A DNA stretch of 5,020 bases. It comes from Thermoplasmata archaeon (GTDB lineage: Archaea; Thermoplasmatota; Thermoplasmata; Thermoplasmatales; Thermoplasmataceae). Shown here piece after piece: positions 144 to 5,020 of the stretch (positions within the stretch are counted from its first letter, which is position 1; each line of letters starts with the position of its first letter). A program made the position numbers and the translations under genes. The notes beneath the pieces were generated by a model that was not told the DNA's origin, did no database searches, and saw only the letters and a list, made by a program, of their open reading frames with translations. Location of the stretch: contig JAJZKS010000154.1 of the NCBI GenBank assembly GCA_021850835.1, forward strand, positions 1 to 5,020, given 5' to 3'.

Positions 144-157
144 ATAAATTATTAATT
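144..157 (+). promoter_or_regulatory. Candidate archaeal TATA box for the alpha/beta hydrolase
   Basis: The sequence ATAAATTATTAATT is an unbroken AT block whose centre lies about 27 bases upstream of the ATG at 177. That is where a TBP-bound TATA box sits relative to an archaeal transcription start when the transcript is leaderless. No Shine-Dalgarno-like purine run precedes the ATG, which fits leaderless translation. The segment 147-157 is also a perfect odd palindrome (AATTA-T-TAATT). The call rests on position and composition only. Confidence 0.5.
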
Positions 158-176
158 GATTAAAACTTCAAAGATA

Positions 177-905
177 ATGGCAACTTTTGTCTTTGTCCAT
201 GGTGCCTGGTTGGGTTCCTGGATCTGGAAGAAAATACTTGGCCCATTGCGCAAGAAAGGCCACGACGTTTATGCTGTCACTCTTACTGGAATGGGCGACA
301 GAGTTCATCTCGCCCGGGAGGACTTTGGAATGGACACTGCCACACAGGACGTTGTAAACCTTCTCGAATATGAAGACCTGCATGTTGTTGTGCTTGTCGG
401 GCACAGTTTCGCAGGCAAGGTGATCTCAAGGGTTTATGACGAGGTTCCAGAAAGAATTAAGATGCTGTTCTACTTTGATGCCTTTGTACCTCAAAAATCG
501 AGGGAGCCCCAGGGCGGAATTGAGCAGATGAGCAAGGATGAGAGGGGAATTATTGAAAAAGCTGTGAAGGCAGAAGGTTCAGGCTGGAAACTTGGAGTCC
601 CTGATGAGTTTCTTGATGACCTGGCCTGGGACCTTAAAGGTGATGACAAAGACTGGTTCTTTTCGAAACTTACCCCATGGCCTTCCAAACTAGCCTTTGA
701 ATCCATTCAAGTGAGCGAGAAAGTGGACAAGGCAAAGAAGGCATATATTTTCTGCAATAGGAGTTGGGAAGATATTGAGAAGCAATGGAAGGACTTCCTG
801 GATTCACTGGACGGGGAGTACAAGCTCCTAGTGGCAGCCCATTATCCCATGGTGACAAAAGTGGATGAGACCATAGATGCCCTGATTGCTCTGTCGAAGT
901 CCTAA
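177..905 (+). CDS. Alpha/beta hydrolase, EstC / hydroxynitrile-lyase-like esterase
   Basis: This is probably a soluble cytoplasmic carboxylesterase-type hydrolase of 242 residues; its substrate is unknown. I chose the ATG at 177 because the protein then begins MATFVFVHGAW, the usual first strand and oxyanion-hole HG motif of the family. A TTG at 156 would add seven residues with no ribosome site. Visible motifs, numbered from the ATG, are HGAW at 8-11, the nucleophile elbow GHSFAG with Ser77, and a C-terminal His222 in AAHYPM, matching the family's H-x-P-M signature. The usual catalytic Asp, in a strand-end motif like YxxCTRD, aligns here with Ser196 (YIFCNRSWED). Glu198 or Asp199 might replace it, or activity may be altered. 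Length is normal for the family (about 230-260). The gene is a single transcription unit converging on the minus-strand operon, so a shared pathway is not implied. Confidence 0.85.
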   Translation: MATFVFVHGAWLGSWIWKKILGPLRKKGHDVYAVTLTGMGDRVHLAREDFGMDTATQDVVNLLEYEDLHVVVLVGHSFAGKVISRVYDEVPERIKMLFYFDAFVPQKSREPQGGIEQMSKDERGIIEKAVKAEGSGWKLGVPDEFLDDLAWDLKGDDKDWFFSKLTPWPSKLAFESIQVSEKVDKAKKAYIFCNRSWEDIEKQWKDFLDSLDGEYKLLVAAHYPMVTKVDETIDALIALSKS

Positions 906-928: not shown

Positions 929-984
929 AAAAAAATTATAATAAATATTTTAAAAAAATAAATGGTTGAGTGAAACTACTCAAC
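929..984 (-). terminator. Hairpin plus T-tracts ending the minus-strand operon
   Basis: On the minus strand a perfect 7-bp stem, GTTGAGT / ACTCAAC with a 6-base loop, spans 984-965 and includes the last codons and TAG stop of the transporter gene. It is followed by CATTTATTTTTTT and, after an AT-rich spacer, a second run of seven T residues ending near 929. T-tracts are the main intrinsic termination signal in archaea, and the stem may add to it. On the plus strand the same region gives only A-runs, so it is a less convincing terminator for the convergent hydrolase gene. Confidence 0.6.
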
Positions 985-2292
985 AGGTTTATCCTTGGTT
1001 TCTTTAAGGAGGAGTGTGGTTATGAGCATGATAACTGTTGCAATTATGCCCACAATTATAATCAGACCAAGAGACTTCGAAACTCCACCTGAAACTCCCA
1101 CTATGTAAGGTATCAGTGTAAGTGACATTATTCCAAGAGTCAGGCTCCCCAACTGGTATGCAATTCCTGACCCTGAGAATCTGTATCTTGTCTCAAACTG
1201 CTCTGTTATGAGCGTTGGTGCTACTCCATCTGCAATCTTGAAGAAACCGTTCAAAAGAACCAGAGCAATAACAAATAACAGGTAACTCTGCATCTTCACG
1301 ATTAGTTCGAAAGGATAAAGGAAAGCTATCACGAGAATCGCTGAGATTATCATGGTCTTCCTCCTCCCGAATTTATCTCCAAGGAAAGAGCCTGCTATTG
1401 CCCACAAAATTGCGAATGCCGCTGCGATAGATACTGCAAAGCTCAACTGCGAATCTGTTATGACTGAAGAAGCTTTCAGGAAGTCCAGAATATAGGCACC
1501 GCTCACAAATATCCCTGGTGCACCTATGATAAAGAATGCAGCCGGGGTAAGAAGGAGCATGGTTTTCCACTTGTCCTTAATGGAGTCCAGTATAGGGAGC
1601 TTGTCAAGCTTTTTCTTTTCCTTTAGTTCTGAGAAGAGGGGGCTCTCTTCTATTCTCATCCTTATGAAAATGGCTACGACGAGGATAAGAACCCCGATGA
1701 TGAAGGGAATTCTCCAGGCAAAGCCAAGCAATTGGGCATGCGTGAACACTGTAGCAAGGAACGTAAAGAGGAGAGATGAACATAGAAGACCTATATTGGC
1801 ACCGTTCTGGATCCAGCTTGTAAGAAACGCGCGCCTCTTTGACGTTGCTATGTATTCTATAGAAAGCGAGGATGCTGCAGGCCATTCTCCTCCAAGCCCA
1901 ATACCCTGAATTATCCTGAAAACCACAATTGCGGTGAAAGCAGTTGTGGAACCGATTACAGATGCATCAGGAAGGGCAGCAATTCCCCCTATTCCTATTG
2001 CAGTCAGCACAAGAGTCCATACCATCATGTTACGACGCCCCATCCGGTCACCGAAGTGTCCGAATATGAGCGCGCCGATTGGCCGGCTCACGTATGTTAT
2101 TCCAAATACAATTACAGATTCACTTACCTTTGCTGCAGCGCTTAGACCCGTGAAAAATATATGGGGCCACACTAGGGATGCCGCTGTGGCCACTATGAAT
2201 AAATCATAGTAGTCAACGATTGTGCCCAAAGCGCTTGCAAAGACCACCTTAGTAGAGCTAGTAGTTGCCATGTTCCTTCTTTCCTCTCTCAT
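976..2292 (-). CDS. MFS transporter, metabolite:H+ symporter (MHS)-like
   Basis: This is an integral membrane proton symporter of 438 residues with about 12 predicted hydrophobic helices, probably importing a carboxylic or aromatic acid used by the operon. Diagnostic motifs are an N-terminal ASALGTIVDYYDLF (19-32; the family usually has a G-x-x-x-E-W-Y-D-F pattern), the loop 2-3 motif GHFGDRMGRR (78-87), RIIQGIGLGGEWPAAS (126-141) which is characteristic of the MHS group (KgtP, ShiA, ProP), the mid-protein repeat GSFLGDKFGRR (301-311), and EQFETRYRFSG (364-374) resembling the family's late E-x-x-x-T-R-x-R-x-x-G. A charged central loop lies at about 210-243. The ATG at 2292 overlaps the upstream stop as ATGA. 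An in-frame ATG at 2271, after a purine-rich GAGAGGAAAGAAGGAAC, begins MATTSS and may be the true start. It is the last gene of the operon. The substrate is inferred only from context. Confidence 0.9.
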   Translation of the reverse strand: MREERRNMATTSSTKVVFASALGTIVDYYDLFIVATAASLVWPHIFFTGLSAAAKVSESVIVFGITYVSRPIGALIFGHFGDRMGRRNMMVWTLVLTAIGIGGIAALPDASVIGSTTAFTAIVVFRIIQGIGLGGEWPAASSLSIEYIATSKRRAFLTSWIQNGANIGLLCSSLLFTFLATVFTHAQLLGFAWRIPFIIGVLILVVAIFIRMRIEESPLFSELKEKKKLDKLPILDSIKDKWKTMLLLTPAAFFIIGAPGIFVSGAYILDFLKASSVITDSQLSFAVSIAAAFAILWAIAGSFLGDKFGRRKTMIISAILVIAFLYPFELIVKMQSYLLFVIALVLLNGFFKIADGVAPTLITEQFETRYRFSGSGIAYQLGSLTLGIMSLTLIPYIVGVSGGVSKSLGLIIIVGIIATVIMLITTLLLKETKDKPVE

Positions 2293-2972
2293 CCATTTAT
2301 CTTGATATTCAGGTCCCTGAGAACGTCCCTTAGTGAGTAAAAGTCCACGCTCAGCTGACCTTCCCTGATTTTCTTTCTTGTTCCCTCTTCCTTCTTTTCC
2401 CTTGCTTCCGCCGCTGAAAGTACTTCATCTATTCTCTCTCGGCGGGTAACTACGACACCGTCGTCATCAGCAGTAATAAAGTCCCCCGGGTAAATGGTCA
2501 CATTTCCAGCAGTTATGGGTGTGTTGACCCAGCCTGGCTTAACCTTCGAAGTTCCTGTAACGTTCACATACCTCGACCAAACAGGGAAACCCATTTCCCT
2601 GAGTTGTTTTGTATCTCTCACTCCACCATCGATGACCAGCCCCGCTATTCCTTTCATCTTGCAAGCAGTTGCCATTAGTTCCCCGAAATAACCACACCTG
2701 GTCTCTGACAATGTGCTGATAACAAGAATGTCGCCTTCCTGGCAGTATTCGATCGCAGCATGAATCATGAGATTATCAGCATCAGCAGTGCACACTGTAA
2801 CAGCTACACCGGATACCGACTTTCCAGTCTGGATCGGCCTGATCCCTGGATCCATTACATTAGTTTTTTCCTGAGATTCCGAAACTGTGGCAACCCCATA
2901 TGAAGTGAGCCGGCTGCATATGGCCCTGTCTTCCTTTGAACGGGGGATGAGTTTGTTAATCTCATGTGTCAA
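2289..2972 (-). CDS. ligK: RraA-fold 4-carboxy-4-hydroxy-2-oxoadipate aldolase / oxaloacetate decarboxylase
   Basis: Family members (GalC, LigK, ProA) are metal-dependent class II aldolases. They split 4-carboxy-4-hydroxy-2-oxoadipate into pyruvate and oxaloacetate and often also decarboxylate oxaloacetate. The 227-residue protein has the fold's signature GELMATACKMKGIAGLVIDGGVRD in two parts: GELMA at 97-101, and DGGVRD at 115-120, where Arg119 and Asp120 match the pyruvate- and metal-binding Arg-Asp pair. FPVWSR follows at 129-134. The C-terminal tail, with AREKKEE at 189-195 and GQLSVDFYSLRD at 205-216, is typical of CHA aldolases and absent from short RNase-E-inhibitor RraA proteins, which argues against a regulator role. 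The start is TTG at 2972, overlapping the upstream TGA as TTGA and preceded by a near-perfect Shine-Dalgarno GGCGGTGA six bases away. It lies directly after the GalB-like gene, matching the pathway order. Exact substrate remains inferred; related RraA-fold members act on other 2-oxo acids. Confidence 0.82.
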   Translation of the reverse strand: MTHEINKLIPRSKEDRAICSRLTSYGVATVSESQEKTNVMDPGIRPIQTGKSVSGVAVTVCTADADNLMIHAAIEYCQEGDILVISTLSETRCGYFGELMATACKMKGIAGLVIDGGVRDTKQLREMGFPVWSRYVNVTGTSKVKPGWVNTPITAGNVTIYPGDFITADDDGVVVTRRERIDEVLSAAEAREKKEEGTRKKIREGQLSVDFYSLRDVLRDLNIKING

Positions 2973-3685
2973 AGGAATTCACCGCCAACATAAGGATAGG
3001 TCCTCATGAATGCTTCTGCAAATTTGTAGTCCTGAATCCCGGAAATCCTACGTGCATGATTGCCCCGTATGAATGCCCTCTCACTGTAATATTCAATTAG
3101 GTGGCTCTGTGCCTGGAAACACTCCATGGCCTTTCTCTTGATATCGAATACATCCGTTATGTCAATGACCAGATCAGGGTAGAATTCTGAAAGTTCTGAC
3201 TGGTGGTGCTCAAACCCGAATATCCTCGGTTGCTTGCATACTGGCACTTCGGGCAACACTCCTCTGGCGATTGAAAGTATTGATGCCCTGTGCACTGCAT
3301 CTGCCACCGTTTCATGGTCGGTATTAAACGGATCTTTCCTGCCATGAGTAACAATGTTTTCAGGCTGGTATTCCCGAAGTATCTTTACAAGTTCAATCAA
3401 CCGGTCATCAGTGATTCTTATGGGATAATCATCCCAGTCCAGGAACCTTACCGGTGCCCCAAGGATCTGGGCAGCCTTAGAGCTTTCTTCCCTCCTTGCT
3501 GTCTTTACTTCGTCGAGAGTCTTTCCCTGTTTCCAGAGCTCGGCAGATTCTCCTCTTTCTCCATAGGAAAGGGCAATAATCTGAACTTTCTTCCCCATCT
3601 TAACGTACTTTGCTATTACTCCACCTGCCCTCCAGACAAAATCAGCTGCATGCGCACTAACCACTAATAAAGAAGTCCTTTCCAT
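2969..3685 (-). CDS. galB: PIG-L/LmbE-fold protein, GalB-like 4-oxalomesaconate hydratase
   Basis: The 238-residue protein has the PIG-L/LmbE fold, best known for zinc-dependent N-acetylglucosaminyl deacetylases. The usual HPDD motif is replaced by AHAADFVWRAGG (11-22), keeping His12 and Asp15 but losing the Pro-Asp between them. From memory this is the form seen in Pseudomonas putida GalB, a zinc hydratase converting 4-oxalomesaconate to 4-carboxy-4-hydroxy-2-oxoadipate. The third metal ligand is probably His124 in THGRKDPFNTDHETVADAV (113-131). Other conserved spots are RREE (64-67) and FEHHQSE (158-164). It probably acts in the cytoplasm; no signal peptide or membrane segment is seen. Start is ATG at 3685, four bases after a GAGGTGA site that contains the stop codon of the upstream hydrolase gene. 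The next gene, a CHA aldolase, would use its product, which supports the hydratase role over deacetylase. The alternative is a LmbE-type deacetylase or amidase of unknown substrate. Confidence 0.8.
   Translation of the reverse strand: MERTSLLVVSAHAADFVWRAGGVIAKYVKMGKKVQIIALSYGERGESAELWKQGKTLDEVKTARREESSKAAQILGAPVRFLDWDDYPIRITDDRLIELVKILREYQPENIVTHGRKDPFNTDHETVADAVHRASILSIARGVLPEVPVCKQPRIFGFEHHQSELSEFYPDLVIDITDVFDIKRKAMECFQAQSHLIEYYSERAFIRGNHARRISGIQDYKFAEAFMRTYPYVGGEFL
2979..2986 (-). promoter_or_regulatory. Shine-Dalgarno site deciding the TTG start of the aldolase
   Basis: The minus strand reads GGCGGTGA-attcct-TTG. The motif differs by one base from the archaeal consensus GGAGGTGA, and the spacing is six bases. 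It lies inside the last codons of the GalB-like gene. No ATG occurs in the frame before residue 40, so this site settles TTG at 2972 as the start. Confidence 0.75.
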
Positions 3686-3689
3686 TCTT

Positions 3690-3696
3690 TCACCTC
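3690..3696 (-). promoter_or_regulatory. Shine-Dalgarno site embedding the upstream stop codon
   Basis: The minus strand reads GAGGTGA-aaga-ATG. The final TGA of this site (3692-3690) is also the stop codon of the DUF6282-type gene, so ribosomes finish one gene directly on the initiation site of the GalB-like gene. This suggests translational coupling and confirms ATG at 3685. Confidence 0.8.
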
Positions 3697-4592
3697 AACA
3701 GATGATGCGCGTTTTCAACAGTCATTTGACGCACTTCTTCAACGGTCAATGAATGTTCCAAGAAGAATCCGGCGAATTTCTTGAAACCTTCAACAGGGAA
3801 AATGGCGGTTTTCTGGCCAAGGTCAGTGGCAATGAGGTTGTGTTCGGGGCCCGTTTCCATTACTCCTTTCAGGACATGTTCCCAACTGACCTTGTTCGTA
3901 GCCGGAGTCGTATAACAGCGTTCAAGGAAAGCTCCGAGCCTTGCCATTTCCTTCTGCTGCTCTATTGTGTAAAAGGTTGTAGGGAAATCAGGGTGTGTTA
4001 TTATGATCCTCTCTAAGCCCATGTCCACGGCTTCCTTTACCAGTTTTAGGCCCTCAACTGGAGACAAGTGTCCCGTTGCCATGATGAGTTTGTACTTAAT
4101 GAAAAGCGAAATTATCTCTTCAGTTTCTTTGAGCAGGTTCCCCTTATCATCGAAGAGTCTTATTGGCGGCCTTAAAATCTTATCTTTCTCAAGCTGTCTT
4201 TGCATTAAGGCCCAGTAAGGAAGTTTTGACTCGTCCTGTTTTCCCTTGTTGTTGAACTCGTTCAGGGAATCAACCGTAGGGAGCCATACAAGCCTCGCTC
4301 CTGCCCTGCCAGCTATGTCTACGGCCTGAGGGTTCATTCCACCGATTGCATTATTAAGCGTCAGGGTTCCGATGACATTCATGCCCGGAACCAGCTTATT
4401 TACATAGTAGGTCCTGTCAGCAGTTGGTACGTAGTGGGATTTTATAGCGAAACCTTTCATTCCCGCTTCTTTTGCCATATTTGCAAATTCTATATCGTCA
4501 CCACTGCGATCCATCACATCTGGGGCCGGATGGACATGAAGGTCATATGCGCCCTGGAGTACCGAAGTGATGTCTTCATTGGAAACGGTCAC
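3690..4592 (-). CDS. DUF6282-type amidohydrolase-like metal-dependent hydrolase (copy 1, intact)
   Basis: This 300-residue protein resembles the family annotated as DUF6282, whose reaction I do not know to be established. It has what looks like a full amidohydrolase-superfamily metal centre in the right order: DLHVHPAPD (17-25; His19, His21), a possible carboxylated Lys51 followed by His53 in FAIKSHY, His175 in ATGHLSP, His200 in ITHPDFP, and Asp257 in ATDLGQ. The ATDLGQ and THPDFP blocks are the most distinctive. No signal peptide is seen, so it is probably cytoplasmic. The start is GTG at 4592; the frame is closed by a TGA at 4619-4617 and has no ATG between the start and the first metal motif. 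A GGGGGCGG run lies just upstream. Sitting directly before the GalB-like hydratase, it could make that enzyme's substrate, for example by hydrolysing a lactone such as 2-pyrone-4,6-dicarboxylate. That role is inference; LigI, the known lactonase, belongs to a different amidohydrolase group. Confidence 0.8.
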   Translation of the reverse strand: MTVSNEDITSVLQGAYDLHVHPAPDVMDRSGDDIEFANMAKEAGMKGFAIKSHYVPTADRTYYVNKLVPGMNVIGTLTLNNAIGGMNPQAVDIAGRAGARLVWLPTVDSLNEFNNKGKQDESKLPYWALMQRQLEKDKILRPPIRLFDDKGNLLKETEEIISLFIKYKLIMATGHLSPVEGLKLVKEAVDMGLERIIITHPDFPTTFYTIEQQKEMARLGAFLERCYTTPATNKVSWEHVLKGVMETGPEHNLIATDLGQKTAIFPVEGFKKFAGFFLEHSLTVEEVRQMTVENAHHLLR

Positions 4593-4708
4593 AGAACCGC
4601 CCCCATTTTCAGGTTCTCATTTTCTTCACAATTCACGCTTTTCCCGGAATGGATACGAAATCCATTAACGGGGCAAATATTTCTTTTAAAGATTTTTTCA
4701 TCCAACAT
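4589..4708 (-). CDS. Possible 39-residue small ORF between the two hydrolase genes
   Basis: The protein starts MLDEKIFKRNICPVNGF and ends ENENLKMGAVL; it has two cysteines (12 and 27) and no family I recognise. Its ATG at 4708 follows GAGGTAA-aaaa-ATG, a Shine-Dalgarno-like site that includes the stop codon of copy 2. Its TGA overlaps the GTG start of copy 1 as GTGA. Both junctions copy the style of the other junctions in this operon, which is the main reason to list it. Against it, a 40-codon open frame occurs by chance fairly often, its start lies in the suspicious 28-base repeat, and two hairpins in the same stretch suggest it could instead be a structured spacer. Confidence 0.35.
   Translation of the reverse strand: MLDEKIFKRNICPVNGFRIHSGKSVNCEENENLKMGAVL
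4593..4617 (-). promoter_or_regulatory. Hairpin abutting the GTG start of the intact hydrolase
   Basis: In the minus-strand RNA, AGAACC and GGUUCU form a 6-bp stem ending at the base just before the GUG start codon. The 13-base loop carries the G-run GGGGGC that would otherwise be the ribosome-binding region. Such a stem could limit initiation unless an upstream translating ribosome melts it. Six base pairs is short, so the structure may be chance. Confidence 0.3.
4648..4666. repeat. Short perfect inverted repeat in the inter-hydrolase spacer
   Basis: AATGGAT and ATCCATT form a perfect 7-bp inverted repeat around the 5-base centre ACGAA. It could be an RNA hairpin in the operon transcript or a dimeric regulator's DNA site. 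About 20 bases further upstream for minus-strand transcription is CTTTAAAAG (about 4692-4684), a good-looking TATA-like element, so an internal promoter ahead of copy 1 is possible. Neither role is demonstrated by the sequence. Confidence 0.3.
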
Positions 4709-4712
4709 TTTT
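4685..4712 (+). repeat. Left arm of a perfect 28-base inverted repeat
   Basis: This arm is identical, base for base, to the reverse complement of 4993-5020. It lies directly after the stop codon of the copy-2 hydrolase and contains the start codon of the possible small ORF. The arms are separated by 280 bases that are almost wholly copy-2 coding sequence. The arm is AT-rich but not a simple repeat, so a 28-base identity is not chance. Confidence 0.9.
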
Positions 4713-4719
4713 TTACCTC
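4713..4719 (-). promoter_or_regulatory. Shine-Dalgarno-like site over the copy-2 stop codon
   Basis: The minus strand reads GAGGTAA-aaaa-ATG: the last two codons of copy 2 (GTG AGG) and its TAA stop make a GAGGT core seven bases upstream of the small ORF's ATG. It mirrors the GAGGTGA site at the end of copy 1. Either it serves the small ORF or it is a fixed by-product of the conserved C-terminal Arg-stop. Confidence 0.4.
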
Positions 4720-5015
4720 ACTAAAAATTCCTGGTTGTCTACACTCATTTGCCTGATTTCATCCACTTTGTAGCCATTTTTAAGCAAAAATCTTGAGAGT
4801 TCAGCCATTCCTTCGACGGGCGAAATTGAATCAGTCTGTCCGAGGTCCGTGGCAAGAATGTTCCTTTCGATTCCGGTTTCCTTGATTTCCTTTAGCACAT
4901 GGTCAAATGTTGAGAAGCCAATGGCCGGCACCCTATAGCTTCTCTCCAGAAAAACTCCGTATTTGCAAATGCTTTTTTGTTGCTCTATAGTGAAAAATGT
5001 TGGATGAAAAAATCT
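4713..5015 (-). CDS. DUF6282-type hydrolase, C-terminal part only (copy 2, cut by window edge)
   Basis: This is a second, divergent copy of the neighbouring hydrolase. From TIEQQ onward its last 92 residues align without a gap to residues 209-300 of copy 1, with 45 identities counted by eye. It keeps FLER, the metal-ligand block ATDLGQ, and SPVEG, and ends VDNQEFLVR where copy 1 has VENAHHLLR. The N-terminal metal ligands would lie beyond the window. The frame can be read out to 5015, where a TAA (5018-5016) interrupts it, but the stretch 4993-5020 is the inverted-repeat arm and probably not genuine coding sequence. Trust the gene from 4713 to about 4995. A GTG at 4931 is only an internal codon. 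It is probably a full upstream paralogue with a related but different substrate; a real truncation by rearrangement is the alternative. Confidence 0.75.
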   Translation of the reverse strand, partial: RFFHPTFFTIEQQKSICKYGVFLERSYRVPAIGFSTFDHVLKEIKETGIERNILATDLGQTDSISPVEGMAELSRFLLKNGYKVDEIRQMSVDNQEFLVR

Positions 5016-5020
5016 TTAAA
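4993..5020 (-). repeat. Right arm of the 28-base inverted repeat at the window edge
   Basis: This arm is the exact reverse complement of 4685-4712 and runs to the last base given, so its full length is unknown. It replaces the expected continuation of the copy-2 coding sequence (the THPDFPTTF region of copy 1) and introduces an in-frame stop. Read on the plus strand it recreates the start of the small ORF, exactly as a fold-back join would. Confidence 0.9.

What the first reader, a model, noticed from the sequence alone, without database searches (positions are those of the whole stretch)
976..4592. Compact operon carrying GalB- and LigK/GalC-like steps plus a transporter in a probable archaeon
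The sequence shows a GalB-type PIG-L protein directly followed, with a 4-base overlap, by a CHA-aldolase-type RraA protein and then an MHS-type transporter. In gallate and protocatechuate 4,5-cleavage pathways these two enzymes run consecutive steps to pyruvate and oxaloacetate. Such a lower meta-cleavage module is familiar in proteobacteria but I do not know of a described archaeal version. No dioxygenase is in view, so the entry substrate could be an aromatic acid or an unrelated tricarboxylic or citramalate-like compound.
Basis: partly seen in the sequence, partly recalled or inferred. Interest (0 to 1): 0.72.

Follow-up and report, generated by a model that had tools for sequence, protein, structure and literature searches.

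The report
Archaeal operon for splitting polycarboxylic acids
A Thermoplasmata-type archaeon carries a compact, apparently acquired set of genes that looks able to import an unsaturated or ring-closed tricarboxylic acid, hydrate it and split it into pyruvate and oxaloacetate, using a protein family of unknown function (DUF6282) where the textbook lignin-breakdown pathway has other enzymes.

Summary
The genes are real and correctly placed: transporter, RraA-type aldolase and PIG-L protein, with 4-base overlaps.

The PIG-L protein is GalB-type: 204 bits to solved GalB against 47 to the next solved PIG-L protein, with the deacetylases' second Asp replaced by Ala. The RraA protein passes one CHA-aldolase model but misses the stricter LigK model.

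DUF6282, PIG-L and RraA form a recurrent module: 48 of the 80 best-matching DUF6282 loci carry both partners within 6 kb. Of the 80, 16 have a ring-cleaving dioxygenase gene near, 32 have TRAP or Tct uptake genes, 2 both.

A near-conspecific contig supplies the upstream end. The composite operon lies between GNAT and alpha/beta hydrolase genes that adjoin without it in 3 of 4 relatives examined. It contains no dioxygenase.

Best reading: import of 2-pyrone-4,6-dicarboxylate or a similar acid; DUF6282 acts like the lactonase LigI without belonging to its family; then the GalB and CHA-aldolase steps. A new variant of a known pathway; substrate and DUF6282 step are inferred.

The parts
976..2292 (-). 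MFS transporter resembling the MHS (metabolite:H+ symporter) family; last gene of the operon
   Evidence: MFS_1 1e-31; TIGR00883 265 bits (cut-off 443 not reached), shikimate and tricarballylate symporter models next; 58-62% identical to MFS proteins of Sulfolobales-order DUF6282 loci L089 and L101
2289..2972 (-). RraA-fold CHA aldolase / oxaloacetate decarboxylase (GalC/LigK-like)
   Evidence: NF006731 254 bits (cut-off 179), TIGR02798 228 bits (cut-off 304.5 not reached); best solved relative 3noj 1.9e-55; N71, H75, G101, R123, D124, T145, K147, R195, E199 kept, D102>E, R40>K
2969..3685 (-). PIG-L-fold hydratase of GalB type
   Evidence: 4-oxalomesaconate hydratase 5cgz 1.4e-59 against 1.5e-11 for the best other PIG-L chain; AHAAD motif; tree
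3690..4592 (-). DUF6282 protein, copy a; amidohydrolase-like barrel, proposed lactonase
   Evidence: PF19799 221 bits; model pLDDT 94.9; amidohydrolase-type structures; conserved H19, H21, K51, H53, H175, H200, D257
4713..5002 (-). C-terminal part of a second DUF6282 gene, copy b, cut by the contig end
   Evidence: tblastn 95% over 101 residues (window 4716-5006) to the complete copy in L002; DNA match to L002 ends at 5002
4993..5020 (.). inverted copy of 4685-4712, probable assembly artefact
   Evidence: the match to L002 stops at 5002 and 4994-5020 matches L002 in the opposite direction
156..905 (+). alpha/beta hydrolase, convergent with the operon; flanking gene, not part of it
   Evidence: match at E<=0.001 in 43 of 117 genomes of the order, where DUF6282 is in 3 of 117; empty site

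Best explanation
The operon (GntR - DUF6282b - DUF6282a - PIG-L - RraA - MFS; the GntR gene and most of DUF6282b are seen only in L002) is a catabolic island. The MFS transporter imports a polycarboxylic acid, most likely 2-pyrone-4,6-dicarboxylate (PDC) or a closely similar lactone or unsaturated tricarboxylate. DUF6282, an amidohydrolase-type barrel, opens the lactone (or tautomerises the open form) to give 4-oxalomesaconate / 2-keto-4-carboxy-3-hexenedioate. The PIG-L hydratase adds water to make CHA (4-carboxy-4-hydroxy-2-oxoadipate), and the RraA aldolase splits CHA into pyruvate and oxaloacetate for central metabolism. The GntR/FCD protein would be the regulator. Shown by sequence: gene content and order, GalB-type and CHA-aldolase-type identity, barrel fold model, recurrence of the module, empty site in relatives. 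Inferred: the substrate, the DUF6282 reaction, the direction of transport, regulation, and gain (rather than loss elsewhere) of the island.
For: GalB identity: (204 bits to 5cgz, 47 to the next chain); tree (5cgz nests among DUF6282-associated PIG-L proteins; four other solved PIG-L chains, deacetylases by name or recall, split off at 100/99; AHxxD has A in 60, G in 6 and is unreadable in 1 of 67 rows, and has D in 4 of 4 of those chains). CHA aldolase. Module: PIG-L within 6 kb in 56, RraA in 56, both in 48 and neither in 16 of 80 loci (the 80 are the best of 369 found). Catabolic context: LigA, LigB or VOC dioxygenase in 16 of 80, TRAP or Tct uptake genes in 32 of 80, both in 2; one representative of each of these labels was checked with Pfam. 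No LigA in 39 of 39 held genomes, drawn from 40 of the 64 loci without a dioxygenase neighbour, while the same model finds LigA in G003, G004, G460 and G569. No PF04909 protein (family of LigI and LigJ by recall) in 6 of 13 genomes with DUF6282: G001, G002, G003, Maledivibacter, Halalkalibacter and the complete genome of Geosporobacter ferrireducens. No PrpF (LigU/GalD family by recall) in 15 of 18, including 7 of 7 archaeal genomes, two of which lack DUF6282. Barrel fold with strand-end His/Asp. Operon ends and empty site.
Against: I saw no assay of any DUF6282 protein, and PDC is not shown to be the substrate. The fold match covers many amidohydrolase-type families and does not point to LigI: a putative PDC hydrolase, 2ffi, is only rank 35 at 14% identity. 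7 of 13 genomes with DUF6282 do have PF04909 proteins, so LigI-like enzymes are not excluded there; 3 of 18 have PrpF. The two clostridial RraA proteins scanned that follow the TRAP genes (L019, L009) stay under the CHA-aldolase cut-off (149 and 145.5 against 179), so the substrate may differ between branches. DUF6282 could be a tautomerase rather than a lactonase. The MFS protein misses its subfamily cut-off. The operon is a composite of two contigs from different assemblies: L002 ends inside DUF6282a, and its genome G002 shows no PIG-L match at E<=1e-30. MAGs can lack genes. LigB-family proteins of uncertain kind occur in 10 of 12 and 7 of 10 genomes searched.
Confidence: 0.5

Rival explanations
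1. The operon is the lower half of an aromatic 4,5-cleavage pathway in the same cell: protocatechuate or gallate is cleaved by a LigAB- or GalA-type dioxygenase encoded elsewhere, and DUF6282 replaces LigI or the GalD/LigU tautomerase.
For: L003, a Thermoplasmata contig, has a Rieske oxygenase gene divergent to GntR, DUF6282, PIG-L, RraA, MFS and LigA; Metallosphaera yellowstonensis has LigA-PIG-L-RraA-LigB with ring-hydroxylating oxygenase alpha and beta genes and DUF6282 about 8 kb away; Acidobacteria L042 and L050 have DUF6282-PIG-L-RraA-LigB-SDR. A metagenome contig of 9,536 bases seems to hold PIG-L P0020, DUF6282 P0158 and LigB P0256, judged only from equal contig length, count and source. 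A LigB protein named Thermoplasmatales, P0251, exists.
Against: The composite operon of this lineage has no dioxygenase; no LigA in G001 or G002. The LigB-family hit in G002 lies beside a gene that I read as an elongation factor, that in G001 among genes I read as unrelated, and both score low (46.7 and 58.8 bits). G524, a Sulfolobales-order genome with the module, is not among the 3 of 147 genomes with LigA (its list is not printed in full), though it has a LigB-family protein elsewhere.
Confidence: 0.25
2. The module degrades another branched hydroxy-tricarboxylate or methylated relative (for example via 4-hydroxy-4-methyl-2-oxoglutarate), and the GalB and CHA labels describe only enzyme kinship.
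For: The P. putida F1 CHA aldolase also cleaves 4-hydroxy-4-methyl-2-oxoglutarate (PMC5065237 passages). RraA proteins beside the module differ between branches. Uptake genes differ: MFS, TAXI-TRAP, Tct, ABC.
Against: The window's RraA passes one CHA aldolase model and keeps 9 of 11 compared active-site residues; linkage to LigA or LigB in two archaeal and several acidobacterial loci points to ring-cleavage products.
Confidence: 0.2
3. Sugar or thiol deacetylase (PIG-L) with an RNase E regulator (RraA), unrelated to carboxylate breakdown.
For: Both Pfam families include such members.
Against: BshB1 83.8 against cut-off 182.5 and RraA 73.1 against 136; the second Asp of AHxDD is absent; the PIG-L protein groups with 5cgz GalB.
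Confidence: 0.03

Closest known systems
Gallate pathway galBCD of Pseudomonas putida KT2440 and Pseudomonas sp. NGC7
   Same: GalB hydratase and GalC CHA aldolase as consecutive steps to pyruvate and oxaloacetate; PMC12314914 passages give GalD-GalB-GalC. That GalB is PIG-L-type rests on 5cgz
   Different: No GalD/PrpF match in G001, G002 or G003 and no dioxygenase in the operon; DUF6282 in two copies; a GntR/FCD regulator gene instead of the LysR-type GalR
Protocatechuate 4,5-cleavage operons (lig, pmd, pcm; Sphingobium, Comamonas, Pseudarthrobacter)
   Same: Lower steps from PDC/OMA to pyruvate and oxaloacetate; LigA or LigB beside the module in some relatives
   Different: Those list OMA hydratase LigJ, PDC hydrolase LigI and CHMS dehydrogenase LigC (PMC8431788 figure legend); here the hydratase is PIG-L-type, the LigI/LigJ family (PF04909, by recall) is not detected in G001, G002 or G003, and the operon has no dehydrogenase or dioxygenase
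DUF6282 (PF19799)
   Same: Clear family member, 221 bits
   Different: Pfam gives the family no function; no paper in the searched library contains the term
Aromatic gene families of Metallosphaera yellowstonensis MK1
   Same: PMC7325606 reports strain-specific enrichment for benzoate and phthalate catabolism terms (passages); its genome carries the same module with LigA and LigB
   Different: In that paper's main text 'oxalomesaconate' does not occur; the passages shown name no GalB, CHA aldolase or DUF6282; I did not read the whole text

Membership tests
Gallate / protocatechuate 4,5-cleavage pathway | LigAB- or GalA-type ring-cleaving dioxygenase with the lower genes | tested here: not met
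   None in the composite operon (window beside L002); LigA 0 of 39 genomes including G001 and G002, MAG gaps possible. Met in relatives L003 (LigA) and Metallosphaera (LigA and LigB)
Gallate / protocatechuate 4,5-cleavage pathway | KCH/OMA hydratase (GalB or LigJ) | tested here: met
   GalB type by score, motif and tree; activity not tested
Gallate / protocatechuate 4,5-cleavage pathway | CHA aldolase (GalC/LigK) | tested here: met
   NF006731 254 bits over 179; residues. The stricter TIGR02798 ligK_PcmE is not reached, 228 under 304.5
Gallate / protocatechuate 4,5-cleavage pathway | OMA tautomerase of the PrpF family (GalD/LigU) | tested here: not met
   0 matches in G001, G002, G003; matches in 3 of 18 genomes overall. 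Window's own genome not held
Gallate / protocatechuate 4,5-cleavage pathway | PDC hydrolase LigI (PF04909) when protocatechuate is the entry | tested here: not met
   0 matches in G001, G002, G003; other genomes with DUF6282 have some, 7 of 13; function may be taken by DUF6282, untested
GalB hydratase family | PIG-L fold with H12, D15 and H124 kept but no Asp before D15 | tested here: met
   invariant columns; AHxAD also in 5cgz. The metal role of these residues is recalled
PIG-L sugar/thiol deacetylases | AHxDD motif | tested here: not met
   AHAAD in the window; D in 4 of 4 other solved PIG-L chains (two named deacetylases, two by recall)
RraA regulator of RNase E | NCBIfam RraA models | tested here: not met
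   NF006875 73.1 under 136; TIGR02998 37.6 under 241
LigI PDC lactonase (for DUF6282) | PF04909 membership | tested here: not met
   Only PF19799 at E 0.001; no credible PDB sequence relative; amidohydrolase-type fold as in LigI by recall
LigI PDC lactonase (for DUF6282) | hydrolysis of PDC | not testable with these tools
   needs an assay
MHS metabolite:H+ symporter family | TIGR00883 cut-off | tested here: not met
   265 under 443.45; MFS membership clear

The most novel reading that the evidence does not exclude
DUF6282 is a previously unassigned lactonase (or tautomerase) family, and DUF6282-PIG-L-RraA is an oxygen-independent route by which bacteria such as Clostridia and spirochaetes, and acidophilic archaea, consume imported PDC-like acids. 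Bacteria and archaea that do carry a dioxygenase have joined the same module to ring cleavage.
Probability: 0.3. Interest if true: 0.72.

Novelty: new variant of a known kind. Interest (0 to 1): 0.55.

Why it matters
It offers a testable function for DUF6282, a family without one found in several bacterial phyla and two archaeal orders here, and suggests that the last steps of lignin-type aromatic breakdown exist as a stand-alone, movable route for polycarboxylic acids. PDC is described as a chemically stable pseudoaromatic acid and a polymer building block (start of the PMC10233912 abstract as listed), so a second kind of PDC-opening enzyme would also be of practical use.

Tried and rejected
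Deacetylase reading of PIG-L: rejected. RraA as RNase E regulator: rejected. The alpha/beta hydrolase at 156-905 as a pathway member (DesC/MgaC-like enzymes are alpha/beta hydrolases): rejected, since it occurs widely in the order without the operon (43 of 117, against 3 of 117 for DUF6282) and flanks the empty site. LigB-family hits in G001 and G002 as catabolic dioxygenases: judged unlikely from weak scores and neighbours; PF02900 did not discriminate, as it also rings in control genomes such as E. coli and in genomes of uptake-type loci. Family-level surveys: DUF6282 over the cut-off in 2 of 400 class genomes, 3 of 117 in the order, 2 of 147 in the order of Metallosphaera. The structural alignment list does not single out LigI among barrel hydrolases. 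Paper searches: DUF6282 0 papers; 4-oxalomesaconate + archaea 10 papers, seen as listing only, no title on an archaeal pathway; 4-oxalomesaconate hydratase + PIG-L 0; protocatechuate 4 5-dioxygenase + Thermoplasmata 0 (that term may miss text printed with a comma); PDC + anaerobic + LigI listed only unrelated papers in the 20 shown; aromatic compound degradation + archaea + protocatechuate + Sulfolobales, listing, two papers then seen in passages; extradiol + Thermoplasmatales 4, listing only; PDC with transporter and anaerobic terms, listing only, apart from PMC12314914 seen in passages. I claim no more than that these searches showed no described archaeal version.

Motif counts by regular expression for RraA missed many rows and are not used; one search replaces them.
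Full report
Anatomy. The minus strand carries four tightly packed genes: DUF6282 (3690-4592), PIG-L (2969-3685), RraA (2289-2972) and an MFS transporter (976-2292), plus the 3' part of a second DUF6282 gene upstream. The plus-strand alpha/beta hydrolase (156-905) is convergent with them. The final 28 bases of the window are an exact inverted copy of 4685-4712. The near-identical contig L002 stops matching at 5002, so this is probably a contig-end artefact.

Host. No whole genome is held for the window. The named proteins among the closest relatives are Thermoplasmatales. Contig L002 (Thermoplasmata archaeon MAS3.bin138, genome G002) matches window 4548-5002 at 94.7% DNA identity over 455 bases, and its DUF6282 protein is 95% identical to the window's second copy over 101 residues.

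The operon and its empty site. L002 reads malic enzyme - GNAT - GntR/FCD - DUF6282b (Pfam) and runs just into DUF6282a, where the contig ends; the window continues DUF6282b - DUF6282a - PIG-L - RraA - MFS and meets the hydrolase. The full operon is thus a composite of two contigs; G002 itself shows no PIG-L match at E<=1e-30. I looked at the four best hydrolase matches in the order. In three genomes (G302, G311, G206; 72-76% identity) malic enzyme, GNAT and the hydrolase follow each other directly, with 24 to 84 bases between the last two. In the fourth (L109, 57%) neither GNAT nor malic enzyme was found in the stretch held. DUF6282 occurs in 3 of 117 genomes of the order, the hydrolase in 43 of 117 at E<=0.001. 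So the operon behaves as a discrete accessory island, and it contains no dioxygenase. A Sulfolobales-order genome (G524, L101) has the same set next to a malic enzyme-GNAT pair: MFS (62% identical to the window's), PIG-L, RraA, DUF6282, a D-2-hydroxyacid dehydrogenase family protein (Pfam) and GntR.

PIG-L is of GalB type. The solved 4-oxalomesaconate hydratase 5cgz (P. putida GalB by recall) scores 204 bits; the next solved PIG-L protein scores 47. In four other solved PIG-L chains (two named deacetylases, two deacetylases by recall) the motif reads HxDD. In 5cgz it reads AHSAD, and in the 67 locus, window and metagenome rows the middle residue is Ala (60) or Gly (6), with one row unreadable. 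In the tree 5cgz nests among PIG-L proteins whose loci carry DUF6282, and the four other chains branch off with 100/99 support. The Sulfolobales rows lie on long branches, so their exact place is unsure.

RraA is of CHA-aldolase type. It passes NF006731 (254 bits, cut-off 179) but not TIGR02798 (228, cut-off 304.5). Against 3noj it keeps N71, H75, G101, R123, D124, T145, K147, R195 and E199, but has Glu for D102 and Lys for R40. Passages of PMC5065237 give R123 as essential and D124 and E199 as metal-binding. The Glu is shared by the other archaeal rows compared (L003, L005/L089, L101) and by the acidobacterial rows L067 and L071, which have LigB near; L042, L050 and L053, also with LigB, have Asp.

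Genomic context in 80 DUF6282 loci. The scan confirmed 369 relatives and kept the best 80, so the sample leans to near relatives of the query. Within 6 kb: PIG-L 56, RraA 56, both 48, neither 16, GntR 49, LigA/LigB/VOC dioxygenase 16 (LigA 1, LigB 9, VOC 6), TAXI-TRAP or Tct uptake genes 32, both contexts 2. These counts come from profiles built from the loci themselves; one representative of each of these labels was checked with Pfam. Some loci are cut by contig ends, and L005 and L029 have their dioxygenases beyond 6 kb. LigA was sought in the genomes of 40 of the 64 loci without a dioxygenase neighbour: 0 of 39 held. The control genomes of that call did not ring either, but the same model finds LigA in G003 (Thermoplasmata, L003), G004 (Metallosphaera) and two more genomes of the latter's order. 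In the DUF6282 tree a group of 22 rows (92/87, not a starred branch) holds the window, the five archaeal loci and 16 of the 17 metagenome proteins added (the 17th, P0141, falls outside it); a second group of 28 rows holds Acidobacteria, Alicyclobacillus and Actinobacteria, with 12 rows having only a dioxygenase near; a third of 39 rows, mostly Bacillota and Spirochaetota, has 29 rows with only uptake genes near. Copy b looks like a duplication within Thermoplasmata (100/87).

What the neighbours say. In Acidobacteria L042 and L050 the order is DUF6282 - PIG-L - RraA - LigB - SDR. In Metallosphaera it is LigA - PIG-L - RraA - LigB with ring-hydroxylating oxygenase alpha and beta genes, DUF6282 about 8 kb off. 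In L003, a Thermoplasmata contig, a Rieske gene lies divergent to GntR - DUF6282 - PIG-L - RraA - MFS - LigA. In many Clostridia and spirochaetes it stands with uptake genes alone. The simplest common denominator is entry at the level of PDC or its ring-opened forms, with DUF6282 as the first step. The textbook enzymes for that stretch are often not found: PrpF is absent in 15 of 18 genomes including 7 of 7 archaeal ones, two of which lack DUF6282. PF04909 is absent from 6 of 13 genomes with DUF6282 (G001, G002, G003, Maledivibacter, Halalkalibacter, complete Geosporobacter) and present in the other 7 and in 3 of 3 empty-site genomes. Different NAD(P)-dehydrogenase families travel with the module in different groups (DUF1932 type in 20 of 80 loci, SDR in 8 of 80; D-2-hydroxyacid type in three loci of the order of Metallosphaera). 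They may stand in for LigC where a dioxygenase is present; this is a guess.

Against this reading. The substrate is not shown. Two clostridial RraA proteins scanned fall under the CHA-aldolase cut-off, so that branch may use a different acid. DUF6282 may be a tautomerase. The fold evidence is unspecific. LigB-family proteins of uncertain kind occur in 10 of 12 and 7 of 10 genomes searched.

Verdict. It is a new variant of the known lower 4,5-cleavage route: same two last steps, different first step, no ring-cleavage gene in the island, archaeal and apparently mobile.

Noticed in passing
window 4685-4712 and 4993-5020: Perfect 28-nt inverted repeat ending at the window's last base; the near-conspecific contig L002 does not continue it, so it is probably an assembly artefact.
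   Followed up: yes
L106/L112, L107/L113, L108/L114 against window and L002: Empty insertion site of the operon between GNAT and alpha/beta hydrolase genes in three of four related loci examined (not seen in L109).
   Followed up: yes
L052, L069, L070 (Alicyclobacillus): The DUF6282 module sits at the end of a long cluster with a VOC-type dioxygenase, an aldehyde dehydrogenase and proteins that I read as catechol meta-cleavage enzymes.
   Followed up: partly
L004 (labelled Bacillota WH5.bin23): Its PIG-L protein is 71% identical to a Thermoplasmatales protein and groups with Thermoplasmata, while its DUF6282 falls elsewhere; the contig may be misbinned or laterally acquired.
   Followed up: partly
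L014, L027, L052, L079 and others: A DUF1932-domain dehydrogenase of unknown substrate recurs within 6 kb of DUF6282 in 20 of 80 loci.
   Followed up: no
L009, L019 (Clostridia): The RraA protein after the TRAP genes of these DUF6282 clusters stays under the CHA-aldolase cut-off, hinting at another substrate.
   Followed up: partly
L099, L100 (order of Metallosphaera): LigA and LigB in clusters with Rieske-type oxygenases and genes that I read as a UbiD-like decarboxylase or a CoA ligase, without a DUF6282 gene in the stretch, which suggests further archaeal ring-cleavage routes.
   Followed up: no
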